Shown here: positions 11,583-60,884 of the stretch, one piece after another | How positions within the stretch are numbered: the stretch's first letter is position 1 | Layout of the letters: each line of letters starts with the position of its first letter | NCBI GenBank assembly: GCA_003612585.1 | Contig: RAZH01000011.1 | Span: 1-64,000 of the forward strand | Origin: a bacterium 1XD42-54 | GTDB lineage: Bacteria > Bacillota > Clostridia > Lachnospirales > Lachnospiraceae | Reading direction: 5' to 3' | Length of the DNA: 64,000 nt | The notes under the pieces: generated by a model | Seen by the model: only the letters and a program-made list of their open reading frames with translations | Databases searched by the model: none | What the model was told of the DNA's origin: nothing | Made by a program: the position numbers and the translations under genes

Positions 11583-11741
11583 TTTACTCACTTCCTTCCT
11601 TTCTAACGCTATACACAGTATACCCACTCCGGGGCAACAAAGCAATTCCAAACTCCCCTGAAAACGTCTGAAATACCACTGAACTTTTTTCGCAAAGCGG
11701 TTCCTGATCTGGTCAGAACCAACAACGCCACGAACCTGTTT

Positions 11742-20413: not shown

Positions 20414-21664
20414 TTACTCTATTATTGATGTTGGTGAAACTCTTGAGAAAATAATCATTCCATCAAATGTCTTTTCAGGAATAATAGTTGTTGTATAAGC
20501 AGATCTCATCCTTTTCTGCATCCCGGACAGGGTGACATTCAATGTTGTAATCGTCTGTTCACTGTTCAAAATTTGTCCCCATGTCTCATCAGCAGCGGCA
20601 CTTGCAAAGTCAATAAAATACTGGTTATTATCGGAATGTTCAAATTGACCATTCAAATCATTTACATTGCTGACTTCAACAACCTTAAATTCTCCGTTTT
20701 CCTTTTGAGAATTAAACTGTGTTTTTTGCGCATCTGTTCCAATCGAATAGTAGCCATTACCCAGATTTTCAGTCAGCAGTTCACCCAAACAGGTATATCC
20801 GGCGACTGATGTCTTTCCAATATGACCATTATGCCCGTTTATGAAAAGTACGCTGCCATCACCATGCTTTAAAAACCATTCTACTTTTTCAAACATATAT
20901 TGGTCGCGTGTAGTATTATAGTCATCACATGACTGTATATCGCAGCATGCATAAATCGTATACAGGCATTCTCTTGCGTAATCAAAAGCGGGTTGGCCGG
21001 AAATATCCACAATGTCCGCTTCAACAGTATCCAATTCCTTGAGAAGTTCCATAGCGGCTTCTTTTCCTTTGTTCAGCATATCCGTCTCTAAAGACGTTCT
21101 GTTTGCATCTGTCAATTCTGAAAATGTTATTTTATATCTTTCACTTAATTCCGGAGCTGCCTGATCAAGTATAGAAAATAGATATTCCTTGTTGTTATCG
21201 AATCGCTGCGTATCCATTCCGTAGAAGTGCAATGCTTCTTTCTCAGGAACATTTTCGTTATAGGAACGCATCCAATTCACTAAATCGACCATTTCCTGTG
21301 TACGATAGATAGCAAATCCAATTTCACCAACTGCTTCTTCAGCAGTGCCATCGCCGCCATGGATATATTCATCCACTTTGAGTGCTCCGCCAAAATCCCC
21401 TTCAATGATAAAGGTATGGCAACCATTGTTTTGTACCATATTTTTAAATACTTCGGCTTTCATTTCATGATATTGTTTTACACCATGACTTGCTTCTCCA
21501 AGTCCCACCACCCGAACATTGGATGGCACTGAAATAGAACTCATATCCGTTTCTGTATAAGATAAATCTGCCGGCATAGTAGTTGTTGAATTGCTGCATC
21601 CTGTAAATAATGCCAGACAACCTATTGTCACAAATCCAGTATTCAAAAACTGTTTCCATTTCAT
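20414..21664 (-). CDS. Erythromycin-esterase-family lipoprotein
   Basis: This 416 aa protein has a lipoprotein signal (LALFTGC lipobox, Cys23). The Ere fold follows: VRVVGLGEASHGVKQYHEMK with the conserved Glu-Ala-Ser-His, TFIIEGDFGGA, YGMDTQRFDN and VLFINGHNGHIG. Ere enzymes hydrolyse the macrolide lactone using the conserved His and Glu. Surface lipoproteins of this family are more distant from EreA/B and may have other substrates. It is last in a row with an Agr-like two-component system, a TM peptide and a zinc ribbon protein. Confidence 0.85.
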   Translation of the reverse strand: MKWKQFLNTGFVTIGCLALFTGCSNSTTTMPADLSYTETDMSSISVPSNVRVVGLGEASHGVKQYHEMKAEVFKNMVQNNGCHTFIIEGDFGGALKVDEYIHGGDGTAEEAVGEIGFAIYRTQEMVDLVNWMRSYNENVPEKEALHFYGMDTQRFDNNKEYLFSILDQAAPELSERYKITFSELTDANRTSLETDMLNKGKEAAMELLKELDTVEADIVDISGQPAFDYARECLYTIYACCDIQSCDDYNTTRDQYMFEKVEWFLKHGDGSVLFINGHNGHIGKTSVAGYTCLGELLTENLGNGYYSIGTDAQKTQFNSQKENGEFKVVEVSNVNDLNGQFEHSDNNQYFIDFASAAADETWGQILNSEQTITTLNVTLSGMQKRMRSAYTTTIIPEKTFDGMIIFSRVSPTSIIE

Positions 21665-34297: not shown

Positions 34298-34725
34298 CCC
34301 TCCTTCCTTTTTTTCTTCTTCACTGTTTTTTTCTTTGCCACATTTTCTTTCTTCCGGGTGACGCATGTCCCGTCACCTCCGATACGTTCCCCCGCAAGGA
34401 TGCTTTCCTCCATACAGGAGTAGTAAAGGTTTTCCGGCCTGAAGCTCAGCTTTTTCGGGTACAGGATCTCTGATTTTATAAACGCCCACAAAAACTGCTC
34501 TGCCGTCATACCGTGATATTTAAAAAATCCGCAGGCTGCGAACGGTGCCGCTCCAAGCATGCAAAGCCATCCCTGGACATCATCGGGCAGGCGCCCCTTC
34601 GTCCCAAAATAAATGGCTACCGCTGCAAGGATCGCCAGCACGGAAAACGCGCACTGCCGGAAATTCAATCCAAAAAACATGGATTCCTGATAATCCCGGA
34701 TCTCCTTATTCATCTTCACTTCCAT
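34288..34725 (-). CDS. prgI: PrgI-family membrane protein (VirB3-like)
   Basis: This 145 aa protein reads NKEIRDYQESMFFGLNFRQC, then two membrane helices (FSVLAILAAVAIYFGTKG and WLCMLGAAPFAACGFFKYHG), then AEQFLWAFIKSEILYPKKLS. This is the PrgI pattern. It partners with VirB4 as VirB3 does in other type IV systems. The C-terminus is strongly basic. It overlaps virB4. Confidence 0.9.
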   Translation of the reverse strand: MEVKMNKEIRDYQESMFFGLNFRQCAFSVLAILAAVAIYFGTKGRLPDDVQGWLCMLGAAPFAACGFFKYHGMTAEQFLWAFIKSEILYPKKLSFRPENLYYSCMEESILAGERIGGDGTCVTRKKENVAKKKTVKKKKRKEGCL

Positions 34726-47653: not shown

Positions 47654-48619
47654 CTACCTCTCCGGTGCTGTACGCACCTTTTTCTTTTCTTCCTTTTTCA
47701 TCTTTGCCAGATCCGCATAGTCCGCCCCTTCGATCTGCGGCAGGTTCTCTATGATCCGATAGGCAGCTCCGTAGGCTTTTTTTAGATTGGCACATGCCCA
47801 TCGCCCTGCAAAATCGTTATCCGTGCAGATCTCGATTTCTTCAATCTCCGGGTGCTTTGATAGAAAATACTCCAGCGCAGGCGGATTCTTCATCTCCCGG
47901 TATGTTTCCCCTTCTTTTGGCGCACTGATCCCGCCAAGCTCCAGACGGTATTTATCCAGACTGCCGCCCTCCAGCGTCAGATGGGCCAGTGCGTCAATGC
48001 AAGCTTCGTAAACCGCTACCCGCTTGGAATCCTTTTGAGGCGGCACACAAAACGCGTACGCCTTTTCACTTCCTGACTGCTCGATCTTAAAGGAATTTTT
48101 TCCATTATCATAAATCCCACGAAGAAAAGCATACCGGGCTTTCCCGTTTTCATCCCGTCCAACGAACACAGCGTTATGGTATGGTCTGCTCTCATAGAGG
48201 ATTCCCAATCTCAGGCAGTACCGGATAGCGGCCTCGCTGATGCCTCTCCCGGACAGGTATTGCAGGATCCTGCGGTTGTTCATGTTCCTTTCCGGCAGCA
48301 CAAACGGTTTCCTTTCCGGTGCCGGAATCTCCTGCGGGATATAGATAAAATTTCCTTCCTGCAGCAGACTGACCGCTTCCATAAAACTGTACCCATCTAC
48401 CTGTGTCAGAAACCGCAGAGCACTGATGCCACCGATGTCCCTCGATTTCCAGTGCCATTTGCTGGTTACCTCGTTGATCTTGAAACTGTCATGATCCGTC
48501 AGTTCCCATTCATTGATTGTCCTTGTTTTCTTAAGGCGGTAAGGCTGGTTCTCCCTCAGATACTCATACGCCCGGATTTTCTTCAGTTCCCGGATCTGTT
48601 CTTCACTGACCCATGGCAT
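47654..48619 (-). CDS. DUF3991/toprim primase-like protein
   Basis: The N-terminal DUF3991 part of this 321 aa protein reads IRAYEYLRENQPYRLKKTRT, HWKSRDIGGISALRFLTQVD, GYSFMEAV. A toprim domain follows: VAVYEACIDALAHLTLEGG (Glu motif) and IEEIEICTDNDFAGRWACAN (Asp-x-Asp motif). It is probably the element's primase for complementary strand synthesis after transfer. A zinc-binding N-terminus typical of DnaG is absent. Its ATG overlaps the metK stop (TAATG). Confidence 0.85.
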   Translation of the reverse strand: MPWVSEEQIRELKKIRAYEYLRENQPYRLKKTRTINEWELTDHDSFKINEVTSKWHWKSRDIGGISALRFLTQVDGYSFMEAVSLLQEGNFIYIPQEIPAPERKPFVLPERNMNNRRILQYLSGRGISEAAIRYCLRLGILYESRPYHNAVFVGRDENGKARYAFLRGIYDNGKNSFKIEQSGSEKAYAFCVPPQKDSKRVAVYEACIDALAHLTLEGGSLDKYRLELGGISAPKEGETYREMKNPPALEYFLSKHPEIEEIEICTDNDFAGRWACANLKKAYGAAYRIIENLPQIEGADYADLAKMKKEEKKKVRTAPER

Positions 48620-49779
48620 TACATGACGGTATTCCGCAGCGCTTCCACCTTATCTGTCCGCTCCCACGGAAATTCCTTTCTTCCAAAATGCCCATATACT
48701 GCAGTCTGTTTAAAAATCGGCCGCTTTAAGCGCAGCGTATCTATGATCTGGTTCGGTGTCAGGGCGAACACCAGTGGGATCGCCGCCGCAAGGCAGTCAT
48801 CCGCACAGATTTTTCCCGTTCCAAAAGTATCCACCTGCACCATGACTGGCTGTGCCACACCGATAGCGTAAGCGAGGGACACCTGGCATCGGCTGGCAAG
48901 GCCGGCAGCTACCATGTTCTTCGCAATATACCTGGCCATATACGCACCGGAGCGGTCTACTTTCGAACAGTCTTTTCCAGAGAAAGCCCCGCCTCCATGC
49001 GGAACAATACTTCCGTAAGTATCCACCATCAGTTTCCGGCCGGTAAGCCCGGTATCTGCATCCAGCCCGCCGCAGACAAATCTCCCTGACGGGTTGATAT
49101 AAACAGCCGTATCCTCATCCGCAGGGAGCAGCCGTAAAGCTGGAGTCAGCACTTTGTTCCTGATCTCCTGCTCCAGCTTCTTCAGGTTCTTATCCTTTGT
49201 ATGCTGGCAGGACACGACCACGCTGTCCAGACGGACTGGCCTGCCATCCTCATATTCCACCGTCACCTGTGCCTTTCCATCCGGCAAAATCCCCTCAATA
49301 AAATGGCTCCGCCTGCTGGCAGCCAGTTCCCGGACAATCCGGTTCGCCAGTACCACTGGCATCGGCAGAAACTGCGGTGTCTCGTCACATGCATAGCCGA
49401 TCATCACGCCCTGGTCCCCAGCGCCATTCTCCCATCCCGGCTGGTTAGGTGGAAGACCGCAGCGTTTCTCCCTCGAACACTCCACAGCTTTTGCAATATC
49501 CGGACTCTGCTGGTGGATCAGCGCATCCATCTCAATATTGTCCGCATGGTATCCCACATCCGAAAGAATCTTTTTCATAATCCCAAACACATATGGCTCA
49601 TGGGTACTGGTAATCTCCCCGGCTGCCAGGATCATCCCTTTCGTTGCCAGCACTTCGCAGGCTACCCTTGATTCCGGATCAAACTTCAAACACTCATCCA
49701 GAATGCTGTCTGCGATCAGGTCGCACAGTTTATCCGGATGCCCTTCCGTAACAGATTCTGCTGTATATAATCGTTTCAT
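48619..49779 (-). CDS. metK: S-adenosylmethionine synthetase
   Basis: This 386 aa enzyme from ATG 49779 reads MKRLYTAESVTEGHPDKLCD (ATP/Mg motif), NGAGDQGVMIGYA, VDTYGSIVPHGGGAFSGKDC (P-loop-like motif), then DRSGAYMARYIAKNMVAAGL. All motifs of bacterial MetK are present, so it should make SAM from ATP and methionine. Its length is normal for MetK. It is a housekeeping gene in an unusual place, inside the transfer module between a sortase and a primase gene and close to two DNA methyltransferases. Confidence 0.95.
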   Translation of the reverse strand: MKRLYTAESVTEGHPDKLCDLIADSILDECLKFDPESRVACEVLATKGMILAAGEITSTHEPYVFGIMKKILSDVGYHADNIEMDALIHQQSPDIAKAVECSREKRCGLPPNQPGWENGAGDQGVMIGYACDETPQFLPMPVVLANRIVRELAASRRSHFIEGILPDGKAQVTVEYEDGRPVRLDSVVVSCQHTKDKNLKKLEQEIRNKVLTPALRLLPADEDTAVYINPSGRFVCGGLDADTGLTGRKLMVDTYGSIVPHGGGAFSGKDCSKVDRSGAYMARYIAKNMVAAGLASRCQVSLAYAIGVAQPVMVQVDTFGTGKICADDCLAAAIPLVFALTPNQIIDTLRLKRPIFKQTAVYGHFGRKEFPWERTDKVEALRNTVM

Positions 49780-49806
49780 AATCAAATCCCAACCTTTCTT
49801 TTAAAA

Positions 49807-49934: not shown

Positions 49935-50759
49935 TTAAGAGCCGGATCCCCGAACAGCCACTACGATGTTCCTGGCACCATTCCATTCATACGAACACGT
50001 TACCAGAGTAAGCACCTGCTTTAAGTCATCCGCTGCAGGATTTTTCCCATTGTCGAACAGTTCCAGGGCTTTTGCCTGCGCAATATAGGAAAAAAGCCCG
50101 TCCGGTTCCTGAAAAGAAACCTGCTGGAATGGGAACATAGAGACATCTGCTTTCAGGACTGCCACGACAGTATAGACAGATACGCCATCCATAGTCTGGA
50201 AAAGAACAGCCGGGTGTTCCTTGCAGTAGTCGTAAGACGCATATCTGTCAAGGTTCCCGAACATTACACCGCTGTTCATGTTATGCCCGTATATGACAAG
50301 GTTCTCCCCCTCCCGGACATCGCAGTTCCATTGCAGAAACAGGCTCCCATTGATATCTGATCCGCCCTTATAATTCCGGCGCAGATAATATTCCGGCTCA
50401 TCCGCACTGCCCTGGAGGACAGGGTAATCGATGCCTGTGTCCGGGATTGCAAGCCACCCTTTCACAGCTGGGTATTGTTCCTGTAAGGCTGCGAGATCCA
50501 CGAGGGGCGGCACAGTGCTTTTTTCCCCAGCTGGCTGCCCTTCCCCGGAGGTTTCCTCCGGAAGACGTTCTCCCGGAAAATCATCCTTCAGTGTCTCTGC
50601 CAGTTCCCGGTTTTCTTCCGGCACAGCTACCATGTGATAATACAGGATCCCCGCACTGGTACAAAAAACCAGAAGCAGGAGCAGCTGCAACATCCAGCGG
50701 ATGAAAGCCTGATATCTGCATGGATCACCGTTCCCATCCCTTTTTCCTGCTTTTTGCAT
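49935..50759 (-). CDS. srtB: Class B sortase
   Basis: This 274 aa protein has an N-terminal membrane helix (WMLQLLLLLVFCTSAGILYY) and a Glu-rich stalk. The sortase domain has the catalytic residues His in NLVIYGHNMNSGVMFGNL, Cys in VLTLVTCSYEWNGA and Arg in ARNIVVAVRG. The domain begins YPAVKGWLAIPDTGIDYPVL, a class B pattern. It probably anchors the adjacent adhesin to peptidoglycan or assembles it. The start overlaps the end of the cyclotransferase gene by 35 nt. Confidence 0.92.
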   Translation of the reverse strand: MQKAGKRDGNGDPCRYQAFIRWMLQLLLLLVFCTSAGILYYHMVAVPEENRELAETLKDDFPGERLPEETSGEGQPAGEKSTVPPLVDLAALQEQYPAVKGWLAIPDTGIDYPVLQGSADEPEYYLRRNYKGGSDINGSLFLQWNCDVREGENLVIYGHNMNSGVMFGNLDRYASYDYCKEHPAVLFQTMDGVSVYTVVAVLKADVSMFPFQQVSFQEPDGLFSYIAQAKALELFDNGKNPAADDLKQVLTLVTCSYEWNGARNIVVAVRGSGS

Positions 50760-51222
50760 TCCTGGCTTTCACTTCCTTTTCTGTCCGGCATACGGCATCC
50801 ATGATCGGCTCCGTTGGGATCCCATTCTGTTTGCACCCCTCTATGATCCCATGCAGATAAAAATCCGATGGCCGGGCTGGGTAGTCTTTATGGGGCGCAT
50901 TCATGACATACACCATGCACTGATAGGCAGTTCCATCTCCTGCCCTGACATGGATGGTTTTCTTCCCATACAGGTATGGATATCCTTCATATCGGTTCAG
51001 GCTCTTTTCACACGCCCCGGTGATCCTCCATAAAACGCCATCCACATGACTGCCCTTTTCCGGCAGGATCGTTGCCACGCCGCTTTCCGGATTCTGGCTG
51101 CAGAAAGCAAGGCGGTAATCATCCAGCCGGACATTTCCCACTACCTCTGCGGCCGGACACCTAAAGTCCATCTGATCCAGGTTCATATTGCTGCCATAGG
51201 CAAAATACAGTGTCTCTGCCAA
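50725..51222 (-). CDS. Gamma-glutamylcyclotransferase/AIG2-like protein
   Basis: From TTG 51222 (AGAAGGTGG site four bases upstream) this 165 aa protein reads TLYFAYGSNMNLDQMDFRCP (the YGSN substrate loop), LDDYRLAFCSQNPESGVATI, HVDGVLWRITGACEKSLNRY (with the catalytic-acid-type Glu) and EGYPYLYGKK. The family cleaves gamma-glutamyl-amide bonds by cyclisation. The ATG at 51306 would start inside a terminator hairpin and is rejected. An amidoligase gene lies 5 kb away. Confidence 0.85.
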   Translation of the reverse strand: MAETLYFAYGSNMNLDQMDFRCPAAEVVGNVRLDDYRLAFCSQNPESGVATILPEKGSHVDGVLWRITGACEKSLNRYEGYPYLYGKKTIHVRAGDGTAYQCMVYVMNAPHKDYPARPSDFYLHGIIEGCKQNGIPTEPIMDAVCRTEKEVKARNAKSRKKGWER

Positions 51223-51258
51223 TCTGCCACCTTCTTTCTGATCTTGGTTTAAAATATA

Positions 51259-51282
51259 GGAGCCCGCATCATGGCAGGCTCC
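51259..51282 (-). terminator. Terminator after the adhesin gene
   Basis: GGAGCC and GGCTCC form a short stem with a 12 nt loop. On the minus strand it is followed by TATATTTTAA. It lies 17 nt after the adhesin stop and 37 nt before the cyclotransferase start. Confidence 0.6.
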
Positions 51283-51298
51283 CATCGGTTTATGGCTA

Positions 51299-54200
51299 TT
51301 AACCATTTTTACGCTTCTTCTTTCTTCTGCTTACCGCAAATCCGGCTAATCCGGCTGCGGACAACAGCATCAGGATGACCGGGATCCAGAGGTTCGTCTC
51401 ATCCCCTGTTTTCGGCACATCGGTCGGTTTTGCCTCATCCTTCATGATAACTTTCTGGATTTCAGAGGTATCTTTCACTTCAAAGGTAATATCCTCGGCT
51501 ACCAGATAACCGTCCGGTGCCTGTTCCTCGCGCAGAGTGTATGTGCCGATTGGCAGTTTTTCAATATAATGCGGCTTATCAGAAGATACCCAGCTCTCCA
51601 CTACCTTTCCCTCACTGTCAAGGATCGTCAGTTTCGCTCCCGGCAGTTCTTTCTTTCCGGTGATATCCGTCTTGCTGATCTCCACTTTGGTTACATCGTC
51701 CTCCATCTTGACTTTCTGGATCTCCACGGTATCCTCAATGGTAAATTCAACACGTTCTGCTGTCACATATCCATCCGCAGGTTTCGTTTCGACCAGCGTG
51801 TAAGTCTTGCCGACTGCCAGTTCTTTGATCACATGGGGTTCTTTTTCAGACACCCATTCATCCACGATTTTACCGGATTCGTCAACTACCTGAAGCTTTG
51901 CCCCCGGCAGTTCCTCCCCAGTGGTTAAATCCGATTTTGTGACCTCCACAGTGGTCGGCTCATCCTCAAAAGTAAATGCATAGGAAACTTCCGCAGTATC
52001 CCCGCCCTGATATTCAAACGTGAATTCTTTTACCTCATCTGTCGTTGCGAATCCAGCCGGAGCATAGAACTCTTTCACATAATATTTTCCATCCACCGGG
52101 AGATCTGCCACAAAGGTAATCTTCCCTTCTGCATCCGTAGACTTCAGTTCAATGACTGTATCTGCTTCGATCAGGACTTTCCCCGATGCAGACAGGATAT
52201 CTTCTTTCGTGTAAAGCCCGAAGATCGCTCCCTCCAGTACACGGTCGCTGTCCTTTTCTTTCTTTAATACGGACACGACCGCCCTCTGTCTGTTGTTCTG
52301 CCAGTCCTCATCATATACCACGACCGGGGTATCCTGGTCACGGTAAGTAAGGTCCACATATCTCGGTTCCCCATCCAGCACGTAGCCATAAGCTGTGCCG
52401 ACTTCAACCACATAGTATTTTCCGACAGGCAGGTTCTCCACTTTTGCGATACCCATTTCATCGGTTGTTACCGTCTCGACCAGCTCATCCTTTTTATAAT
52501 GATCTTCGCTGACGCCATCGGCTGCTTTGATATCCTCGGCTGCATAGATTTCAAAAGTAACATCCGTCAGGTTCCCGGTAATATAGTTAAAGATATGCTC
52601 TACAACCCCTTTTACCTGGCTGACTAATGTCACGCTGTCGAGGAATTCACCCTTTTTATTAACGATCAGCGTTGCCGTTGGCACCTCATCCTTCATCTCC
52701 ACTTTCTGGATCTCGGCTATATCTTCCACAGTAAAGGTGATATCCGTTGTTTTCAGGTAACCAAACGGTGCAAAAGATTCGCGCAGTGTATAGGTCTCTC
52801 CGACCGTCAGACGCTTCATGACATGCGGCTCATCTTTTACGGATACCCAGCTGTCAACCGTATTTCCGTCTTTATCGATGACAGATAGGGATGCGCCGGA
52901 AAGTTCCACGCCTGTGGTGATATCCGATTTCGTGATCTCGACCGTTGTCGGCTCATTCTTCTTTACGGATTCCAGTTTCACGACCGGGATATCCTGTCCC
53001 TGATAGGAAGCGTCAAAGTTGAGGATCTCATTCGAAGATACAAATCCGGCCGGCGCTGCCAGTTCTTTCACATAATACTTTCCGAGCGGCAGATCAAGCG
53101 TAAAGGCTGCCTGTCCTTTTTCATCACTGGTTACCGTTTCCAGAAGGGTGTCTGCTGTCACGAGGGTCTTGTCACCGGATACGATATCCTCTGCATTATA
53201 AAGGCCGAACTCGGCTCCCGCTACAACTGCTCCGTTTTCTGCGTCCTGCTTCTCTACCGTGATGCTGACTTTCTGCCTGTCATTGGTAAACTCTGCGGTT
53301 TCTGTAATGACCGGGGTGTCCTGCCCTTCATAGACAAACTCCACTTCCTCTGAAGAAACATTCAGGACATAACCTTCTGGCGCAGTCACTTCTTCGATCC
53401 GGTATTTTCCAAGCGGCAGGTCCTCTATCACTGCCTTACCTTCCCCGTCTGTTGTCACGGTCGCTACCAGAGCACCGGAAGCATACTCCAGATTACGGTT
53501 CCCGGACTCACCAGTCTGATGGTCTGCGGTGTAGATATCCTCTGCAGCGTATACCTTAAATACAGCGCCTGCAAGGTCTGCCGCCTCATAGTGGAAATCC
53601 TTATCAAATCCGGACAGCACTTCTCCATCCTTATGGATGACAAGTTCACCCTTTGCCGGATGGTTCTCATAAGCCACTTCAATAATGGCGTCTTTGCTCA
53701 CGCCATCCACCTGGTATGCGGTATTGGAATCCACTTTAATTTCTACACAGCCTGGATTTAACGTATACCCGTCCGGGGCTGTCACTTCCTCGATCCGGTA
53801 ATTTCCCGGCTGCAGGTTCTCCGGCAGGATCAGATACCCTTCCTCATTGGTAAAATAGGATTTGTGCACGGTGGTATGCGGATACGTTGTTACCTGTTCC
53901 ACATATTTCCCATTATCCAGATTATAAACCTTAAATTCCGTATCAGGAACCAGTACAGGCTGTTTGGTCTCATCGTCTTTCTTAATGATCTTTAACTTCG
54001 CTTCGAACTCATCGTCCAACAGTACCCGCCAGGTCTGCGGTTCGGTTTTATTCTCCGATATCGTCACCATAAAATCATCCACCGGGGTGAAGTTATGGGG
54101 GGTTGTTGTCTCACGCACGATATAAGTCCCATAAGGGATTGGGATCGAGCATGCATAGCCCTTTTCATCGGTAAACATCTCTGTTTTTCCATCTGCGGTC

Positions 54201-56572
54201 AGCACGATCGGCTCTGCGGATGCAAAATCATAGGAACCGTCCGCTTTGGTTTTCAGGCTGCTTACAAGGTATGCGGAAAATCCGGCGCCGGATAAAAGGT
54301 CCGCATCCGTCTTGCCATTATTCGCCGCTTTGATCACCTGGAACGGCTGCTTAACCACCTGTTCCGGTGATTCTGCGGTGCGCTCCACGGTTTTCACTTT
54401 GTCACCCTCATAGCTTACATCGATATCATGCTCTTTTTCATCCGCAAGGTATCCAACCGGAGGGGTAAGCTCTTTCACATAATATTTTCCCAGGTACAGG
54501 TCCTCCACGGATGCATTTCCCTTTGCGTCCACAGTCAGTGTGGTAACCTGGGTACCTGCTTTATAGAGGACGCCTGTCTTTCCATCCGGATGCACGATAT
54601 CCTCACGGGCAAACAGTCCATACACTGCACCCTCAAAGACCGCATCGCCCTGTGTCACTTCCCCTGTTTCTTTATCTTTCTTTACCAGATGGATCGTGCC
54701 TCTGACACGCTCATCCGTCACATTCTGTGTGACAGTTTTCCCAAGCACAAGTTTTACGCCATACGCCTTGGTATCGATCAGATACCCGGCCGGGACAGAA
54801 ATCTCTTTCAGATATACGGTATCCTGTGTCTTTGTGATCATCAGGCTGGAAGCGCCATTGCTGTCAGTGGCCGGCATTTGGGCGATCAGCTTCGTACAGT
54901 CTTTGTCACTGTAAATGCCATATACGGCACCTGCAAGCCCGTTTCCTGTCTGGCTGTCCTTTTTTATGATCTCAACGGTTGCCACCTTCACCCAGCTTAC
55001 TTTGAAATCCACATATTTTTCATCATCCACGCCCTCGCCAAATACAAGGGCCAGGTCCTGTGTACCGGATCCGGTGGTGATCTTATAAGCACTGAAATCC
55101 TTGGTGATGCTTCCCTTCATCGTAACGCTCCAGGCATCCTTTACATCCTCTGCCTGTGTCAGCGGTGCGGAAAGATAAAACTTTGTACCGCCGCTTACTT
55201 CCACACTTGCGCCTGCCGCACTGGTCTTTCCGGTCGTTACGTTATGGAATTTGACGCCATTTGGCAGTTTCATGGTGATCGTCTGCAGTTCATCCGCATT
55301 AAATGTGATCTCTTTTGTCCGCTGTGAGTTCCCGTCAATATATGCGGTCACATCCGCATCAGAAAAGGACATCGCTACATCCGGGATATCCGGCTGGCTC
55401 ACACAGTAATTGTAAAGTTCCATTGCCAGCGCCTGTCCGCTAGAATTCGTACCAGAAAAAGCGTCACCGCTTCCATTGGCATAAGCAGCCGCCAGATGGG
55501 TAATGATAAAGCGTTTTCCTGTGGAAAAATCCGGATGCTTTTCATCAAAGAACCCATTCTCACCACTGGCTTTCGTTCCGTAATAGCATACTTTTGCCAG
55601 CGTCTTTCCATCTGAGAGCTTGTTGATCGTGTACACGCCATCTCCCGGTCCCGGCTTGGATGGCTGCACGCAATAAGCAGTTGCAGTGATATTTCCAAAC
55701 TGAACCGTGTATGGGCAGGTCAGATAAGTTCCAAGGCCATAATCTGCATAATAATACCATGGGCCTTTTGTTACCGTTACACTTAAATTCCCGGTATTGG
55801 CTCTCGCAGAAGCCATAAAGGTAACGCTCTCCCCTGCTTCAAGCGCAAACAGCCCGACTTCTTCCTCCACGGCCTGCTCCATGACATCGGAAACAGACAG
55901 ACCGCTTTCCTCATCCACAGTATCCTGCGTTTCCGCTTCTTCAAGTGCTTCATCCAGCTCTGTCTCCGTTAATCCCTCTGTCTGCAAAGAACTATCCGGC
56001 TCACCGTCTGTCTGCGGTTCCGTCTGTGGCTCTGTCTGTTGTTCTGTCTCCTGGCTTTCCGTCTGCGAGGCATCCTCCCCGTCATCCTGGGATTCTTCTG
56101 TCTGCCCTGAGTCCTGGCTCTCAGACTCTGTTTCCACACTGCTGCGTAAGACGGCTCCTGTATCCTTTACTGACACGTTTCGGCTGATCTGGTAAACAGG
56201 ATGGTCCGTAGTCTGCGGCTCCACATAATAGACCGCCTTATAGGTATCGGCATGGTCTGTGGAAAAATCTTCCCCTTTTGTATTTTTCGCTTCTTCAAAT
56301 GTGACTTTTACTTTGTTGTCATCGATGATGTCGATGCCAGTAAAATCAAAAGTAATGTCAAAATCACTGCCAACCGCCACCTCATAGTCATGTGCGGTAA
56401 CCACTTCATCCTCATCCAGTTGGTCTTTGACTTCCTCATACACCGAGGGCTTCTTTTCCTCCTGGCCTGTTTCTGCAGCAGAGGCAGCCAAAGGTGATAA
56501 GGCTCCGGAGAGGATCGTTACCGCAGCCAGCAGGCCGGATACGATACGTTTCATATTTCTTTTCATTTTCAT
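51299..56572 (-). CDS. Giant LPXTG-type adhesin with Cna-B/SpaA repeats and possible thioester domain
   Basis: The 1757 aa protein has a signal peptide (residues 1-33, ending AASAAE) and an acidic Glu/Gln/Thr linker (about 150-225). A domain follows with TAYCVQPSKPG (Cys301) and SGQALAMELYNY (Gln380), which may form an internal thioester. Then come about ten Cna-B/SpaA-type modules with Lys/Asn/Glu isopeptide patterns (for example KKDSQTGNGLAGAVYGIY). At least three near-repeats of about 85 residues carry the form TKSDxTTGxELxGAxL-x-V. The C-terminus is VPKTG (1719-1723), a membrane helix and RRKKKRKNG. It is a wall-anchored adhesin, probably for mating-pair contact or host binding. Confidence 0.92.
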   Translation of the reverse strand: MKMKRNMKRIVSGLLAAVTILSGALSPLAASAAETGQEEKKPSVYEEVKDQLDEDEVVTAHDYEVAVGSDFDITFDFTGIDIIDDNKVKVTFEEAKNTKGEDFSTDHADTYKAVYYVEPQTTDHPVYQISRNVSVKDTGAVLRSSVETESESQDSGQTEESQDDGEDASQTESQETEQQTEPQTEPQTDGEPDSSLQTEGLTETELDEALEEAETQDTVDEESGLSVSDVMEQAVEEEVGLFALEAGESVTFMASARANTGNLSVTVTKGPWYYYADYGLGTYLTCPYTVQFGNITATAYCVQPSKPGPGDGVYTINKLSDGKTLAKVCYYGTKASGENGFFDEKHPDFSTGKRFIITHLAAAYANGSGDAFSGTNSSGQALAMELYNYCVSQPDIPDVAMSFSDADVTAYIDGNSQRTKEITFNADELQTITMKLPNGVKFHNVTTGKTSAAGASVEVSGGTKFYLSAPLTQAEDVKDAWSVTMKGSITKDFSAYKITTGSGTQDLALVFGEGVDDEKYVDFKVSWVKVATVEIIKKDSQTGNGLAGAVYGIYSDKDCTKLIAQMPATDSNGASSLMITKTQDTVYLKEISVPAGYLIDTKAYGVKLVLGKTVTQNVTDERVRGTIHLVKKDKETGEVTQGDAVFEGAVYGLFAREDIVHPDGKTGVLYKAGTQVTTLTVDAKGNASVEDLYLGKYYVKELTPPVGYLADEKEHDIDVSYEGDKVKTVERTAESPEQVVKQPFQVIKAANNGKTDADLLSGAGFSAYLVSSLKTKADGSYDFASAEPIVLTADGKTEMFTDEKGYACSIPIPYGTYIVRETTTPHNFTPVDDFMVTISENKTEPQTWRVLLDDEFEAKLKIIKKDDETKQPVLVPDTEFKVYNLDNGKYVEQVTTYPHTTVHKSYFTNEEGYLILPENLQPGNYRIEEVTAPDGYTLNPGCVEIKVDSNTAYQVDGVSKDAIIEVAYENHPAKGELVIHKDGEVLSGFDKDFHYEAADLAGAVFKVYAAEDIYTADHQTGESGNRNLEYASGALVATVTTDGEGKAVIEDLPLGKYRIEEVTAPEGYVLNVSSEEVEFVYEGQDTPVITETAEFTNDRQKVSITVEKQDAENGAVVAGAEFGLYNAEDIVSGDKTLVTADTLLETVTSDEKGQAAFTLDLPLGKYYVKELAAPAGFVSSNEILNFDASYQGQDIPVVKLESVKKNEPTTVEITKSDITTGVELSGASLSVIDKDGNTVDSWVSVKDEPHVMKRLTVGETYTLRESFAPFGYLKTTDITFTVEDIAEIQKVEMKDEVPTATLIVNKKGEFLDSVTLVSQVKGVVEHIFNYITGNLTDVTFEIYAAEDIKAADGVSEDHYKKDELVETVTTDEMGIAKVENLPVGKYYVVEVGTAYGYVLDGEPRYVDLTYRDQDTPVVVYDEDWQNNRQRAVVSVLKKEKDSDRVLEGAIFGLYTKEDILSASGKVLIEADTVIELKSTDAEGKITFVADLPVDGKYYVKEFYAPAGFATTDEVKEFTFEYQGGDTAEVSYAFTFEDEPTTVEVTKSDLTTGEELPGAKLQVVDESGKIVDEWVSEKEPHVIKELAVGKTYTLVETKPADGYVTAERVEFTIEDTVEIQKVKMEDDVTKVEISKTDITGKKELPGAKLTILDSEGKVVESWVSSDKPHYIEKLPIGTYTLREEQAPDGYLVAEDITFEVKDTSEIQKVIMKDEAKPTDVPKTGDETNLWIPVILMLLSAAGLAGFAVSRRKKKRKNG

Positions 56573-56590
56573 GGTCTGTTCTTCCTTTCA

Positions 56591-56625
56591 AAAAATAAGC
56601 CGGAAAGATGTTGCTCTATCCGGCT
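56591..56625 (-). terminator. Terminator between amidoligase and adhesin genes
   Basis: On the minus strand AGCCGGA and TCCGGCT pair and run into TTATTTTTTG. It lies 32 nt after the amidoligase stop and ends only about 20 nt before the adhesin ATG, leaving almost no room for a separate promoter. Confidence 0.75.
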
Positions 56626-56656
56626 GGTTTTATTTCTTTCCTATTCAATTGTCGTG

Positions 56657-57613
56657 TTACCGGGGTTCCTGCCCCCGGTTTCTTTGCTGTAAGCAGGCAT
56701 ACTGGCTCTTGTCATATCGCCACGCCCGGTCACCTTCCAGATTCTTCAAAAGGTGTTCCCGGACATTTTTATATTCCGGCCCGATCAGGCCAAGCCTTAA
56801 AAGAAATGTACGGAATGTAAATGCGGGATTTTCTGATATCTCCGTTTTCCGCATCTGTGTGCATTTCTGGTTGATGGCCTGTGCCGAGATCGCCAGTGCC
56901 AGCGTGATGTTCGCCCGCACCTGCCCTGCATGGAGCGTGCTTTCAAAACAGCGCCATTCCAGCGTCCCTTTCGAGAACACCGCATGCAGGTTCAAAGCAT
57001 AATAGCGGCTCCAATGGTAATGGCTGCCGCTTCCGTCACCGCCCTCATACCAAGCCTGTTTGAATTTCTCCATGGAGATCGTGCTGTTTGGCATCTTCCG
57101 GATCTTTTCCAGCACAGCAGGCCGAACCTTCTGGCAGTATTGATCTGCCCTTTCGCTTTGTACTTTTAGTGCTTTAAACAGGATATCCTCTTTGGAATAC
57201 ATGATCGTCATGGCATTCTTCAGGCTTCTTGGCGTGTGGTTAGATGCATCCACATGGACATGCTGGCCACAGGAACCATTGACAAACGCCCCATGATGGC
57301 GCAGGCACCGGACAACTTCCTGCAGCTTTCCCATTTCGGAATACTCCAGTTTCGGGCTCACCATCTCGGTTGAATAATCCTCATCAGCCATTGTCTTGCG
57401 GCCTCTCACTTTTCGTTCCGTCACAATGCTGGTGTCACGGGAAAATTTCCATTCCTTCCCCTGCTGGTCGCGCACACACCACGAATCATACGAAGATCTG
57501 TGGTAACAGTCCGTATCAAACATTTCTGCTACCACTTGAGCCGCACGTTCCCTGGTAATCCCTGTCATCTCGATCTCTGTGCCAAAATACTGGTCCCGAA
57601 GATCAATCGGCAT
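56657..57613 (-). CDS. Amidoligase (COOH-NH2 ligase, glutamine-synthetase fold)
   Basis: From Met4 (57613, GGAGG nine bases upstream) it is 318 aa. It reads YFGTEIEMTGITRERAAQVV (the first Glu pair of the amidoligase fold), EWKFSRDTSIV, STEMVSPKLEYSEMGKLQEV (metal/ATP Glu), GAFVNGSCGQHVHVDASNHT (His-x-His) and GTLEWRCFESTLHAGQVRAN (Arg/Glu motif). These match the amidoligase family. It would ligate an amino group to a carboxylate, for example a gamma-glutamyl bond on a peptide or wall. It overlaps the cytosine methyltransferase gene. Confidence 0.88.
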   Translation of the reverse strand: MPIDLRDQYFGTEIEMTGITRERAAQVVAEMFDTDCYHRSSYDSWCVRDQQGKEWKFSRDTSIVTERKVRGRKTMADEDYSTEMVSPKLEYSEMGKLQEVVRCLRHHGAFVNGSCGQHVHVDASNHTPRSLKNAMTIMYSKEDILFKALKVQSERADQYCQKVRPAVLEKIRKMPNSTISMEKFKQAWYEGGDGSGSHYHWSRYYALNLHAVFSKGTLEWRCFESTLHAGQVRANITLALAISAQAINQKCTQMRKTEISENPAFTFRTFLLRLGLIGPEYKNVREHLLKNLEGDRAWRYDKSQYACLQQRNRGQEPR

Positions 57614-58892
57614 AAACAGCATCCTCCAGTCTTAGTTCTTCATCCACTGCTTTCAGGTTCCTGCCAATGGCTTCGACAACCGTCACAGTCACACCATTCC
57701 CGGCTTGCTTGTAAAGCTGCCTGTCAGACATCCCCACGATCATCCGGTCGATCTGGCTGTCGTAATAGCCCTGCAGCCGCAGACATTCCCTGGGGATCAG
57801 CCTGCGGATCCGTCCATGATAAACAACGCCATGGCGGTCTGTAGCCGTGATCGTAAACATCGGTTCCTCCGGCTCTTTCATCCTCCGGCCATTCTGCCTT
57901 TTCTTAAGCCTGTCCGGTGTCAGGATCGCCCTCGGCCCTGTCTCAACAAGGACACCGGAACTCTCCCCCTTATGCTTATGGATACTGGAATCCTGCCTTG
58001 TATTCAGACAGCGGGCATGTTCCGTCACAAGCGGCGGAACAGACAAATCCACAAAGTGAACCGTTCCCTGCTGGCTCTCCGTTGTCAGTGTGTGGGCAAT
58101 CTCATGCCCGACTCTCCCCCTGCGGGTGTTTAAGTTCGCATATCCAAGATCAATGCTGTCACCGGGGTATGCCATCTTGTATCCTTTTTTCGTATTCTCC
58201 TTGATTGGGATCCCCACTTCATAGAGCCCGGTCTTACCTCCCATGCCCCCGGCCTGTGAAGTAAGCGTGCAGCTTACTCCGGCGGGATCGTAGACTCTTT
58301 CCCCCTGGCTTCCTGCAAGGATTTGTATAAGAGCTGCTCCGTTTGGTACTGGGACAGGTAATATTTTTCCGGCACATCTTCCATCAAGATATCCGATAAG
58401 ATACACCCGCTTTCTTGACTGCGGGACTCCGAAATCCTTGCTGTTAAGCACCTTCCATTCGACATGGTACCCCAGCTCAGAAAACGTACCGAGGATGGTG
58501 TGAAACGTCCTCCCTTTGTCATGCGATAAGAGTCCGGGAACATTCTCAAGGAGAAAATACGCAGGTCGTTTGTCTGCAACCAGTCTGGCAGCTTCAAAGA
58601 ACAGGGTTCCTCTGGCATCGCCAAAGCCTCCACGTTTTCCAGCGATGGAGAAAGCCTGGCAAGGAAATCCTGCGCATAAAAGATCAAAGTCCGGCATGGC
58701 TCCTGTTTCAATTTTTCTTGCATCGTCACAATACCACTCCCCTTCCGTATCGAACAGCCTTCGGTAGTTCGTATCCGCATAAGAGTCCATTTCGCAGTGT
58801 CCGACACATTCAAAGCCCCCGGCACGCTTAAGTCCTTCACGGAATCCACCGATTCCGCTGAATAAATCAAAAAATCGAATCGTTCCGGCTAT
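57603..58892 (-). CDS. DNA C5-cytosine methyltransferase with non-standard start
   Basis: The motifs are in canonical order: IRFFDLFSGIGGFREGLKRA (motif I), LLCAGFPCQAFSIAGKRGGF (motif IV Cys), YFLLENVPGLLSHDKGRTFH (ENV), VPQSRKRVYLIGYL (QRR) and the C-terminal LYKQAGNGVTVTVVEAIGRN. The first ATG in frame (58790) lies after motif I, so it cannot be the start. The frame upstream has no ATG, GTG or TTG. I propose ATA 58892, three bases after AGGAGG, though another weak codon is possible. It overlaps the amidoligase gene. No endonuclease partner is visible. Confidence 0.88.
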   Translation of the reverse strand: MAGTIRFFDLFSGIGGFREGLKRAGGFECVGHCEMDSYADTNYRRLFDTEGEWYCDDARKIETGAMPDFDLLCAGFPCQAFSIAGKRGGFGDARGTLFFEAARLVADKRPAYFLLENVPGLLSHDKGRTFHTILGTFSELGYHVEWKVLNSKDFGVPQSRKRVYLIGYLDGRCAGKILPVPVPNGAALIQILAGSQGERVYDPAGVSCTLTSQAGGMGGKTGLYEVGIPIKENTKKGYKMAYPGDSIDLGYANLNTRRGRVGHEIAHTLTTESQQGTVHFVDLSVPPLVTEHARCLNTRQDSSIHKHKGESSGVLVETGPRAILTPDRLKKRQNGRRMKEPEEPMFTITATDRHGVVYHGRIRRLIPRECLRLQGYYDSQIDRMIVGMSDRQLYKQAGNGVTVTVVEAIGRNLKAVDEELRLEDAVYAD

Positions 58893-58949: not shown

Positions 58950-59543
58950 TTAATCTGCTGTTTTCCATGTATCTGCTGCTAATGCTTCTATCGGTTCTTC
59001 ACCCTCATCTTTTCCTTCTGGCTCATCCAGCTCTGCTTTGGTATCCTCTGGTTTCCCGGCCGGCAGCACTGCTTCAGATTCTTCGGTCACCTCCGGTTCT
59101 TCGGATTCCGGCTCCCCCTCAGTTTCTTCCCCGGCACACTCCGATTCTTCTTCAGTTCCTTCTGGTTCTTCTTCAGCGCCCTCTGGTTCTTCCCCAGCCC
59201 CTTCTGCATCTTCCTGCTGGGACGCTGCAATTTCTTTTGCCCTTCTCGCATTCTCCTGCTCGTCCTCTATTTCCCTGACTGCTTTCTCGATGATGCTTAT
59301 AAGGAAATCCTTCTGTTTGCATCCCTTCCATGCGACTACTGCTTTGAGCCTTCCGAATAATTCCTCTGTTACTTGTACTGCGATTGTTCTTGCTGCCATC
59401 TGGTCCACTCCTTTTTCCATAAAATGTTCTTCGATTACCTGTTGCAGAAATTCTGGTGTGCTGATCCCACGCTGTTCGATCTCCCCTCTGACCTTCACAT
59501 GAAGCTCTACCGGGATCCTGCCGCATATGTTCTTCATTTCCAT
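58950..59543 (-). CDS. Tandem ribbon-helix-helix-like protein with acidic tail
   Basis: From Met18 (59543, AAAGGAG nine bases upstream) this 197 aa protein begins NICGRIPVELHVKVRGEIEQ, then ISTPEFLQQVIEEHF. A second similar unit follows: ARTIAVQVTEELFGRLKAVV, then KQKDFLISIIEKAVREIE. Each has the strand-helix-helix length of an Arc/MetJ unit. From about residue 115 it is an acidic Glu/Pro/Gly repeat (EEPEG, EEEPEGTEEE). A DNA-binding regulator or partition-type protein with a DNA-mimic-like tail is possible. Confidence 0.65.
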   Translation of the reverse strand: MEMKNICGRIPVELHVKVRGEIEQRGISTPEFLQQVIEEHFMEKGVDQMAARTIAVQVTEELFGRLKAVVAWKGCKQKDFLISIIEKAVREIEDEQENARRAKEIAASQQEDAEGAGEEPEGAEEEPEGTEEESECAGEETEGEPESEEPEVTEESEAVLPAGKPEDTKAELDEPEGKDEGEEPIEALAADTWKTAD

Positions 59544-59694
59544 CTGCGCTTTCTCCTTTCGTTTTGTTATACACACCATACCCCAAAGATGCATACAAAG
59601 CTATTCACAATACCCAACAAATATCGGCTCCAAGATCATTGCATAACCAACAATACATAGATGTATCTATACTTTCAAAACAGCACCACCTCCT

Positions 59695-59988
59695 TTACAT
59701 CCCATCCTCCATTGCAGAAAGGAAATCCAGCATCTGCGCCGGAATTTTATCCGCTTCTGCCTGCACCGGATCCCCAGACACAAAATGCGTATTCTGGAGT
59801 TCTTCCCGGATCACCTGGCGGATCATCCCCACCATTTTTTCACTGTCCTCAGACTGTAAGATTGCCTGAACCAGAAAAGCATTTTTTTGCCCATTAGGAA
59901 CACTCTGCAGGATTTCCCATGCCCGTTTATGCTCCGGATCATCCAGTGTCGGGCGGAACGAAAAAACGGGGCGGCTCACCTCGCGCAC
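59695..59988 (-). CDS. parR: ParR-like partner of the actin-like protein
   Basis: This 97 aa protein reads VFSFRPTLDDPEHKRAWEIL, VPNGQKNAFLVQAILQSE and DSEKMVGMIRQVIREELQ. Small size, an RHH-compatible first half, an extended C-terminal tail and a position directly after, and overlapping, a parM-like gene fit ParR adaptor proteins. These bind the centromere and the filament end. Sequence similarity alone is weak, so the call rests mostly on context. Confidence 0.65.
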   Translation of the reverse strand: MREVSRPVFSFRPTLDDPEHKRAWEILQSVPNGQKNAFLVQAILQSEDSEKMVGMIRQVIREELQNTHFVSGDPVQAEADKIPAQMLDFLSAMEDGM

Positions 59989-60884
59989 ATCTGCCCCACA
60001 ATCCGTTCATATCCGGCAGCGTTGGCTTTTACGTCTGTTAAGTAAAAAGCCCTGCAAAGCCCGTCCTGCGGTGTCACGTGGCGTCTTACGATGGTGGATC
60101 CGCCGCCCATAAAAACGGAGGGGATTGCCCGCAGGTCAAAGCCTGCCTCCATAATGGCAGACAGGATCCTCTCTGTATAACTGCGCCCATTCTTCTGGAT
60201 GATCTCTTTGGCTTTCGGATCCAGGCTGCAGCTGTTTCCATTCAGGACACGCTCGATCTGGATATCTGTCACAGACAGCCCGGTACTTCTGCGCACCTGT
60301 TCCATCGTTTCATCGATACAGCGGATAACGCCAAGCTCAAGGCTGCGGCAGGTAGCCGCATTAGGGACAGCATTATCCAGCCGCATCAGGTCCACAGTCC
60401 AGCCGCCAATGTCCACCAAAAGAACAGACGGCTCATCCCGGACATATTCCGGATGGAGAGCAAGCGCAGAATAGCCCTGGGGAAACAGTTTCACATCCTC
60501 AACCGTCAGTTCATATGCTTCATTTTCGTATCGGAAACAAAGCGGCTGCTCCTTCCGGAACAGATACTGCCGGAAAGCCGTCTTTTCCCTTCCGAAACCT
60601 GCAAGCGGCAATCCGGCTGCAAGGATGATCTTTCCTTTTCTCTCTGCCCGGCGGTATTCGATCTCCTGTGCCAATGCTGCCATAGTCAGCAGATAATAAT
60701 TATCATTGGCGGTCTTATCTTTCATAAGCGTCTGGCGTCCGGTACCGCAGACATAATAATTCCCCGCATACTGCAGCACGTTCTGCATCGTGTATGGCTC
60801 ATAGTCATACCGGGACAGTCCTGTTGGGAAACAGATATGCGGGGTTTTCATGGCATAATAGCCATGGTCGATTCCTATAATCAT
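59976..60884 (-). CDS. parM: ParM/StbA-type actin-like segregation ATPase
   Basis: This 302 aa actin-fold protein starts MIIGIDHGYYAMKTPHICFP (phosphate 1 motif), then YVCGTGRQTLMKDKTANDNY, GKIILAAGLPLAGFG, VLLVDIGGWTVDLMRL (phosphate 2) and IPSVFMGGGSTIVRRHV (adenosine motif). It polymerises to push apart DNA copies bound by ParR. On an ICE it could stabilise the replicating circular form. A 260 nt gene-free region upstream may hold the centromere. Confidence 0.88.
   Translation of the reverse strand: MIIGIDHGYYAMKTPHICFPTGLSRYDYEPYTMQNVLQYAGNYYVCGTGRQTLMKDKTANDNYYLLTMAALAQEIEYRRAERKGKIILAAGLPLAGFGREKTAFRQYLFRKEQPLCFRYENEAYELTVEDVKLFPQGYSALALHPEYVRDEPSVLLVDIGGWTVDLMRLDNAVPNAATCRSLELGVIRCIDETMEQVRRSTGLSVTDIQIERVLNGNSCSLDPKAKEIIQKNGRSYTERILSAIMEAGFDLRAIPSVFMGGGSTIVRRHVTPQDGLCRAFYLTDVKANAAGYERIVGQMCAR

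What the first reader, a model, noticed from the sequence alone, without database searches (positions are those of the whole stretch)
49935..57613. Amidoligase, gamma-glutamylcyclotransferase, sortase B and giant adhesin in one neighbourhood
Seen: the four genes are consecutive on one strand. Known, from memory: amidoligases and AIG2-like cyclotransferases have been noted together in bacterial genomes, one forming and one cleaving gamma-glutamyl-type amide bonds. Inference: the element encodes a cell-surface modification system. The amidoligase adds an amino acid to a peptide, wall stem or the adhesin, the cyclotransferase trims it, and the sortase anchors the adhesin. This could change mating-partner recognition, phage access or wall crosslinking. 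I see it as the best candidate for an undescribed system.
Basis: partly seen in the sequence, partly recalled or inferred. Interest (0 to 1): 0.8.

Follow-up and report, generated by a model that had tools for sequence, protein, structure and literature searches.

The report
Phage-type ligase pair beside mating adhesin
A mobile element of a gut bacterium carries two linked enzymes that probably add and remove a glutamate-type cap; the same pair occurs in many phages and in another kind of conjugative element, and here it has ended up beside a separate surface-adhesin and sortase module.

Summary
On the minus strand, amidoligase (57622-56657), a 1757-aa thioester adhesin (56572-51299), a GGACT/AIG2 cyclotransferase (ending at 50725) and a class-B-like sortase (50759-49935) are consecutive in a CD1110-type conjugative element.

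They are best read as two modules. Amidoligase and GGACT form a conserved pair: GGACT is in the same locus in 49/51 phage-type loci, 19/20 loci of a second element type and 29/30 of the window's type. In 200 family genomes, 22 of 28 GGACT genes lie within 8 kb of an amidoligase. In 120 phage loci GGACT follows the amidoligase (r 0.80) far better than terminase does (0.33). The phage loci show no recognised adhesin or sortase. The adhesin is separate: it occurs on elements without amidoligase (67-82% identical in the thioester domain), while several of the window's amidoligase kin carry a different one (33-40%).

Likely function (inferred): reversible gamma-glutamyl-type capping of a cytoplasmic acceptor, possibly a wall precursor; adhesin and sortase serve mating contact. 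The acceptor is unknown. The pair is in print for phages; the conjugative settings and a degenerate amidoligase partner look little described.

The parts
57603..58790 (-). C5-cytosine DNA methylase, directly upstream of amidoligase (20 bp overlap). Motif I (FFDLFSGIGGFREG) lies in frame upstream of the first ATG, so the true start is further up and uses another codon
   Evidence: PF00145 221 bits; TIGR00675 above its cut-off; frame translation; C5 methylase in 28/30 loci of this element type, within -20 to +34 bp of the amidoligase in those 28
56657..57622 (-). Amidoligase (Amidoligase_2), 321 aa, no export signal; conserved G14xE16xE18, H121xH123, R206Y207..LNLH, E222xR224, plus a conserved C-terminal tail (about 265-305)
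   Evidence: PF12224 E 2.6e-62; PHROG 2443; alignments; AlphaFold model mean pLDDT 92.8
51299..56572 (-). Giant surface adhesin, 1757 aa: signal peptide, thioester domain (residues about 265-397, Cys invariant), SpaA repeats, VPKTG sorting signal
   Evidence: PF20610, PF17802; TIGR01167 over its cut-off; hydropathy and TED alignment, Cys in 27/27 aligned domains
50725..51222 (-). GGACT/AIG2 gamma-glutamyl cyclotransferase, probable TTG start at 51222 (first ATG at 51306); YGSN loop and YEGYP with the catalytic-type Glu
   Evidence: PF06094; PHROG 2520; closest solved relative human gamma-glutamyl cyclotransferase, E 1e-13; alignment of 6; sequence
49935..50759 (-). Class-B-like sortase with N-terminal membrane segment, YGHN and TLVTC
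   Evidence: PF04203; TIGR03064 below its cut-off; PDB sortase B relatives; motifs
48619..49785 (-). S-adenosylmethionine synthetase (MetK), probably of a mobile-element lineage
   Evidence: TIGR01034 478.6 bits against 309.4; groups with 17 of 21 phage-locus MetK and apart from 28 copies of family genomes; own second copy 49% identical
58950..59594 (-). Uncharacterised acidic protein conserved upstream of the methylase in this element type
   Evidence: no Pfam hit; HMM hits in most type-C loci listed
59976..60884 (-). ParM-like actin/partition protein, start of the conserved block
   Evidence: PHROG 691; 28/30 loci of this element type
31946..34366 (-). VirB4, CD1110 family: names the conjugative element
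   Evidence: NF045971 1034 bits against 325

Best explanation
Two modules have come together in one lineage of conjugative elements. Module 1 (C5 DNA methylase, amidoligase, GGACT, in many copies MetK) is a mobile-element cassette shared with tailed phages. Inferred chemistry: the amidoligase uses ATP to activate a gamma-type carboxylate, most likely glutamate's, and joins it to an amine on a cytoplasmic acceptor; GGACT removes the cap again, releasing 5-oxoproline. It is thus a make-and-remove cap that a newly arrived element uses on its host. The acceptor is not shown; my first choice is a cell-wall precursor or muropeptide, to change access for competing phages or elements or to protect against the element's own wall hydrolase. 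Module 2 (thioester adhesin plus sortase) is displayed on the wall and most likely holds mating cells together. Shown: conservation, co-inheritance, module independence, conserved active-site-type motifs. Inferred: chemistry, acceptor, purpose.
For: Pair: GGACT in the same locus in 106 of 121 amidoligase loci (phage 49/51, type C 29/30, type B 19/20, other 9/13, distant GATase class 0/7) and in 75 of 80 viral contigs. Converse: 22/28 GGACT within 8 kb of an amidoligase, 22/24 strong amidoligases with GGACT. Co-inheritance r 0.80 against 0.33 for terminase in the same 120 phage loci; smallest bootstrap difference 0.31. Independence of the adhesin: 14 of 21 TED_2 adhesins within 40 kb of a CD1110 VirB4 have no amidoligase within 8 kb; the window's thioester domain is 67-82% identical to ten adhesins of elements without the pair, but 33% to type-C loci L017 and L112-L117 whose amidoligases are 80-83% identical, and 38-40% to L014-L016 (amidoligases 77%); the first-splitting type-C branch (L092, L093, L096) has the pair without a detected adhesin, though only L096 is a long stretch. 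Wall lead: in type B an NlpC/P60 wall hydrolase was detected in 18/20 loci, in the sampled maps mostly just after the pair, and a pair-less relative has VirB4 directly followed by that hydrolase (L259). [quoted passage not shown]).
Against: No experiment or sequence feature here names the acceptor. GGACT chemistry needs a free alpha-amine on the glutamyl residue (recalled), which the D-Glu of an intact wall stem lacks. The methylase and MetK links fit a DNA-side role as well as a wall role; within type C the methylase follows the amidoligase at r 0.92, as closely as GGACT does (0.81). Within the window's lineage the four genes stay clustered (26/30 type-C loci with adhesin, 20/30 with sortase). 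Type-C loci L019-L022, which share the window's gene order, have a similar adhesin (78%; amidoligases 77-79%), and adhesin and amidoligase distances still correlate (r 0.76, n 15), so some functional link cannot be excluded. Loci were chosen by the amidoligase, which favours finding its partners.
Confidence: 0.6

Rival explanations
1. One surface system: the amidoligase modifies the adhesin (or the wall at its anchor), GGACT trims it, the sortase anchors it.
For: Four genes clustered in many related elements, in two orders; GGACT sits between adhesin and sortase in the window's sublineage and in L019-L022, and these share a similar adhesin; adhesin and amidoligase distances correlate at r 0.76 in 15 loci.
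Against: No adhesin or sortase HMM hit at 51 phage-type loci and 80 viral contigs that carry the amidoligase; adhesins on elements without the pair; adhesin exchanged independently; no export signal on either enzyme.
Confidence: 0.08
2. DNA-side cassette: methylases, MetK, amidoligase and GGACT together make or protect a modified base, or a nucleotide-derived anti-restriction product.
For: ParB-type methylase in 49/51 phage-type loci, C5 methylase in 28/30 type-C loci; methylase and amidoligase genes abut or nearly abut in type C and co-vary there (r 0.92, n 23); MetK co-inherited with amidoligase (r 0.91 in 26 phage loci against 0.34 for terminase) and grouping with phage MetK; in phages the cassette sits upstream of terminase genes.
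Against: Phage methylases follow the amidoligase only weakly (r 0.41-0.46); only 6/20 type-B loci have a C5 methylase hit; no further base-modifying enzyme was recognised among the neighbours scanned, though whole phage genomes were not scanned.
Confidence: 0.2
3. Small-molecule chemistry: the pair makes and breaks gamma-glutamyl amines (polyamine-type compounds) for the benefit of the element, with no wall or DNA target.
For: Known enzymes of the two folds act on gamma-glutamyl amines (recalled: PuuA-type ligases, GGACT, BtrG); closest solved GGACT relative is human gamma-glutamyl cyclotransferase.
Against: No polyamine gene recognised among the neighbours scanned; it does not explain placement in a conjugation operon.
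Confidence: 0.2
4. Hitch-hiking cargo: the pair is a selfish or neutral metabolic gene set with no tie to transfer or infection.
For: Accessory in type B: L256 and L259 show the hydrolase without the pair in the stretch held; only 7 of 144 CD1110 VirB4 places have an amidoligase within 40 kb.
Against: Active-site-type motifs nearly invariant over 44 diverse sequences and long co-inheritance speak for sustained selection.
Confidence: 0.1

Closest known systems
RIO1/phiEco32/LUZ24-type phage 'peptidoglycan modification cassette' (PMC5498523 section 16 read; PMC3890496 passages)
   Same: Amidoligase and gamma-glutamyl cyclotransferase in one gene block of a mobile element; proposed (untested) role in changing the host wall against superinfection
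   Different: [quoted passage not shown] neither was found among the window neighbours scanned. Here the pair sits with DNA methylase and MetK in a conjugative element
Tn6164 phage-derived block of C. difficile (PMC3485107, one passage) and C. clostridioforme LM41 prophages (PMC11318856, passages)
   Same: Tn6164 lists SAM synthetase, DNA methylase, a hypothetical/virulence-related protein, amidoligase, AIG2; the LM41 prophage table lists amidoligase (two genes each in two prophages) and gamma-glutamyl cyclotransferase
   Different: No sortase in the Tn6164 paper's text (find); a phage terminase follows there. The window's block is in a conjugative element, with adhesin and sortase between
TIE adhesin of plasmid pLS20 (PMC8092201, outline and passages)
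   Same: Thioester-domain adhesin on a conjugative element; required there for efficient conjugation
   Different: The pLS20 protein has no sorting signal and needs no sortase; the window's has VPKTG and a sortase gene nearby. Whether the window's domain is class II was not tested
CD0386/CD3392, sortase substrates on C. difficile CTn1 and CTn7 (PMC5569036, passages)
   Same: Element-borne adhesin with a PKTG-type signal; CD3392 shown there to be anchored by SrtB
   Different: No amidoligase pair is mentioned in the passages read

Membership tests
Amidoligase_2 (PF12224) | Profile match above the curated cut-off | tested here: met
   211.3 bits against 22
Amidoligase_2 (PF12224) | Acidic and His/Arg active-site motifs conserved | tested here: met
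   GxExE, HxH, RY..LNLH, ExR invariant or at least 90% in 44 sequences; their catalytic meaning is recalled
Amidoligase_2 (PF12224) | ATP-dependent amide ligation | not testable with these tools
GGACT/AIG2 cyclotransferase | Profile match and YGSN loop plus catalytic-type Glu | tested here: met
   PF06094 55 bits; YGSN and E107 invariant in 6 sequences; catalytic role of that Glu recalled from GGCT
Class B sortase | Equivalog TIGR03064 cut-off | tested here: not met
   110.8 against 153.75 bits; hence 'class-B-like'
Class B sortase | Sortase domain, catalytic Cys and His, class B relatives | tested here: met
   PF04203, TLVTC and YGHN (motifs recalled), PDB relatives
TIE (thioester) adhesin | Thioester domain with its Cys, Ig-like stalk, wall signal | tested here: met
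   PF20610, SpaA, Cys in 27/27 aligned domains, LPXTG domain
TIE (thioester) adhesin | Cys-Gln thioester bond formed | not testable with these tools
   Partner Gln not located here
RIO1-type phage peptidoglycan cassette | Glutamine amidotransferase and ATP-grasp enzyme beside the pair | tested here: not met
   None among the window neighbours scanned; therefore not filed as a member, though it may work alike
CD1110-type conjugative element | VirB4 of NF045971, relaxase, coupling protein | tested here: met
   NF045971 1034 bits; PF03432 and PF02534

The most novel reading that the evidence does not exclude
Amidoligase, GGACT and in phages a degenerate amidoligase partner form an undescribed reversible gamma-glutamyl capping system that phages and conjugative elements use on newly entered cells as an exclusion or establishment device, probably on the cell wall. 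It is an exclusion chemistry shared by two kinds of mobile element, exchanged between them as a unit with its own SAM supply.
Probability: 0.25. Interest if true: 0.8.

Novelty: new variant of a known kind. Interest (0 to 1): 0.45.

Why it matters
Amidoligase/cyclotransferase pairs have been listed in phage genomes for years; the papers seen here give a hypothesis but no tested target. Finding the same co-inherited pair in two separate kinds of conjugative element, once inside the transfer operon next to a wall hydrolase and once beside a methylase, gives two independent settings in which to test it and points to a function of entering a new cell rather than of being a virus. It also shows that the neighbouring adhesin and sortase should be tested separately.

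Tried and rejected
One surface system with the adhesin as substrate: rejected as the main reading on module independence. GGACT-adhesin translational overlap: rejected as a probable start-codon artefact. A truncated methylase in the window: rejected, motif I is in frame upstream. A tail HMM was built from the wrong 321-aa protein by my mistake (its hits look like the DUF3991/primase-type proteins it was drawn from); its partner HMM drifted onto amidoligases; both were dropped and the relation was shown by hhalign instead. The first gene tables lost genes through an overlap filter and were replaced for counts. A known anti-phage defence system: amidoligase and GGACT have no PADLOC match. A solved relative of the amidoligase by sequence: none credible (best E 0.23). 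Literature: all ten searches used; amidoligase with gamma-glutamylcyclotransferase and sortase gave 0 papers, amidoligase with 'conjugative' 6 papers, of which passages of three were read. Iyer et al. 2009, cited by several of these papers as the source on these families, is not held and is known here only through papers that cite it.
Full report
What is there. The window is part of a conjugative element: a CD1110-family VirB4, a MobA-type relaxase and a coupling protein lie at 31-42 kb. On the minus strand a block runs ParM-like protein, small proteins, C5 DNA methylase, amidoligase, thioester adhesin, GGACT/AIG2, class-B-like sortase, MetK and a DUF3991 protein. Two corrections: the GGACT probably starts at TTG 51222, so it does not overlap the adhesin (relatives of 164-165 aa), and the methylase starts upstream of its first ATG. 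The own genome has one PF12224 gene.

How the survey was made. PF12224 was searched in three draws: family 22 of 200 genomes, class 55 of 391, phylum 24 of 299, with 0 of 14 control genomes. I fetched 100 places: most strong hits plus a hand-picked set of weak ones (for example L030 and L099-L106). With the window, two annotated phages (L002, L003) and 19 named loci found with the window's amidoligase, 122 loci were scored with HMMs built from window and phage proteins. Many stretches end at contig ends, so absences of outer genes (sortase, MetK) are upper bounds. All these loci were chosen by the amidoligase, so the converse was tested separately.

The pair. In one search the amidoligase was found in 121 of 122 loci, and GGACT in the same locus in 49/51 phage-type loci, 29/30 type-C loci (the window's kind; the miss, L111, ends inside the adhesin), 19/20 type-B loci, 9/13 others and 0/7 of a distant amidoligase class whose neighbour is a class II glutamine amidotransferase. 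Converse test on the same 200 family genomes: 22 of 28 GGACT matches lie within 8 kb of an amidoligase, and 22 of 24 strong amidoligases (E below 1e-46) have a GGACT within 8 kb. Protein distances of amidoligase and GGACT correlate at r 0.78 over 172 loci. In 120 phage loci that also have terminase, r is 0.80 for GGACT and 0.33 for terminase, with a smallest bootstrap difference of 0.31; in a subset of 76 loci with all markers terminase reaches 0.53 and GGACT 0.86. So the two enzymes travel together and are not just neighbours.

Settings. (A) Phages: ParB-type methylase, often a C5 methylase and MetK, then a ~250-aa protein, amidoligase, GGACT and the terminase genes. (B) A second conjugative type: VirB4, amidoligase, GGACT, then an NlpC/P60 wall hydrolase (hydrolase found in 18 of 20 loci; order). 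Of 8 among 196 class genomes with this VirB4, four have the amidoligase next to it; L259 has VirB4 directly followed by the hydrolase, L256 has the hydrolase without the pair in the stretch held, and L258 and L260 show neither in the short stretch held. The pair is therefore accessory there. (C) The window's type: C5 methylase abutting or nearly abutting the amidoligase (gap -20 to +34 bp in the 28 type-C loci with a methylase), then GGACT and adhesin-sortase in either order. On an amidoligase tree of 128 rows (15 named loci, the GATase class and short frames left out; every third viral locus used) type C is one clade (support 98) and 17 of 18 type-B rows form one clade (99), with phage and unassigned rows outside them. 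This fits a few transfers of the pair between phages and conjugative elements; the direction is not shown.

A degenerate partner. The ~250-aa phage protein next to the amidoligase has no Pfam hit in the copy scanned. It is a full-length homologue of the amidoligase (hhalign probability 100, E 5.6e-46 over 264 columns, sets of 29 each; also PHROG 2443). Its consensus lacks the ExE and HxH motifs but keeps the N-terminal region and the C-terminal tail. It was flagged in 44 of 51 phage-type loci and 50 of 80 viral contigs; some further copies were scored as amidoligase by my motif rule. Its predicted structure (mean pLDDT 88, pTM 0.62) has a similar order of elements with the central part reduced (compared by eye, since the fold search was off). 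A catalytically dead subunit or regulator of the ligase is my inference. The LM41 prophage table, which lists two amidoligase genes of one PHROG before the cyclotransferase (PMC11318856, passages), fits this arrangement.

The adhesin is another module. TED_2 adhesins were found in 33 of 200 family genomes (58 matches); 9 of 58 lie within 8 kb of an amidoligase. CD1110 VirB4 was found in 68 of 200 genomes (in most genomes only five candidates were scored, so the number of copies is a lower bound). Of 144 VirB4 places entered, 7 have an amidoligase within 40 kb; 21 of the 58 adhesins lie within 40 kb of a VirB4, 14 of them with no amidoligase within 8 kb. Twelve such places were fetched: 10 show a giant PKTG-type adhesin, none shows an amidoligase or GGACT hit, and in two the adhesin HMM gave no hit. 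The thioester domain of the window's adhesin is 67-82% identical to those ten (L218 82%, L215 80%). To type-C kin it is 86-98% (L108-L110), 78% (L019-L022, same gene order), 38-40% (L014-L016) and 33% (L017, L112, L113, L115, L117, L118), although the amidoligases of L017, L112, L113, L115 and L117 (80-83%) are nearer to the window's than those of L019-L021 (77-79%). In 15 type-C loci amidoligase-GGACT distances correlate at 0.92, amidoligase-adhesin at 0.76, so the adhesin is not free of the lineage either. In L119 adhesin and sortase lie upstream of the methylase, apart from the pair, and the first-splitting type-C branch (L092, L093, L096; only L096 is long) has the pair but no detected adhesin. 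The simplest reading is that the adhesin was added to, and swapped beside, an older pair.

MetK. The window MetK is 49% identical to the second, full-length copy of its own genome, 48-52% to the copies of other family genomes apart from one type-C copy and one partial copy, and 51-56% to 17 of 21 phage-locus copies, the other four being 41-46%: identity alone separates them little. On a tree of 65 rows (four near-duplicate loci left out) the 16 type-C and 17 of 21 phage rows form one side (support 99), and the 28 family copies, taken as chromosomal without checking, another; four long phage branches fall with the latter. Holding type C with those copies is disfavoured but not firmly rejected (p-AU 0.052), and other host groups were not sampled. 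In 26 phage loci MetK follows the amidoligase at r 0.91 against 0.34 for terminase. MetK seems to belong to the cassette more than to the surface genes.

Mechanism. Established knowledge (recalled): glutamine-synthetase-fold ligases activate the gamma-carboxylate of glutamate and join it to an amine, and GGCT/GGACT enzymes release such amides as 5-oxoproline. The window enzymes keep the matching motifs, and the GGACT's closest solved relative is human gamma-glutamyl cyclotransferase. That the amidoligase has this fold is family knowledge, not shown here. A make-and-remove gamma-glutamyl-type cap is thus the simplest chemistry; it is inference. Both enzymes look cytoplasmic, whereas adhesin and sortase carry export or membrane signals. 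For the acceptor I favour a wall precursor or muropeptide because of the type-B placement before a wall hydrolase and the printed wall hypothesis for phages (PMC5498523); a DNA-side or small-amine acceptor is nearly as likely. For the adhesin, the pLS20 thioester adhesin that is required for efficient conjugation (PMC8092201) is the best model.

Novelty and score. The pair is known in phages (PMC5498523 section 16; passages of PMC3890496, PMC5513430, PMC11318856) and in the phage-derived part of Tn6164 (PMC3485107, one passage). Apart from that table I found no paper in the held library that treats it as a module of conjugative elements; the searches were made, several hits were seen as listings only, and the library lacks most subscription journals and Iyer et al. 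2009. The parts that look new are the two conjugative settings, the co-inheritance measure, the degenerate partner and the demonstration that the adhesin is separate. A new variant of a known kind, interest 0.45.

Noticed in passing
L010:8514-9299 and other phage-type loci (44 of 51); 50 of 80 viral contigs: A ~250-aa phage protein upstream of the amidoligase is a full-length homologue that has lost the active-site motifs; the copy scanned has no Pfam hit.
   Followed up: yes
window 26299-28218 (-): Tetracycline resistance ribosomal protection protein of the TetM/W/O/S family, above its NCBIfam cut-off.
   Followed up: no
window 18719-19348 (-) and 20414-21664 (-): Vat-like acetyltransferase (below the cut-off) and a distant erythromycin-esterase-like protein: possible further resistance cargo.
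   Followed up: no
window 6982-11651 (-): Three consecutive tyrosine-recombinase-like proteins, all below the curated cut-offs, reminiscent of recombinase-trio elements (recalled).
   Followed up: no
L070:10733-11962 (+): GGACT frame of 409 aa that holds two GGACT-like stretches (two YGSN motifs) in tandem beside a divergent amidoligase.
   Followed up: no
L118 and G303:C35: Amidoligase broken in two frames in L118 and a short amidoligase match near a type-B VirB4 in G303: the gene may sometimes be lost.
   Followed up: partly
L099, L102-L106, L030: Distant amidoligase class with a class II glutamine amidotransferase in the locus and without GGACT: perhaps an ammonia-using variant of the same ligase family.
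   Followed up: partly
G000:C28:76643-78901 and G000:C4:51171-51554: The same genome has a second CD1110-type VirB4 and a second, weaker TED_2 match elsewhere.
   Followed up: no
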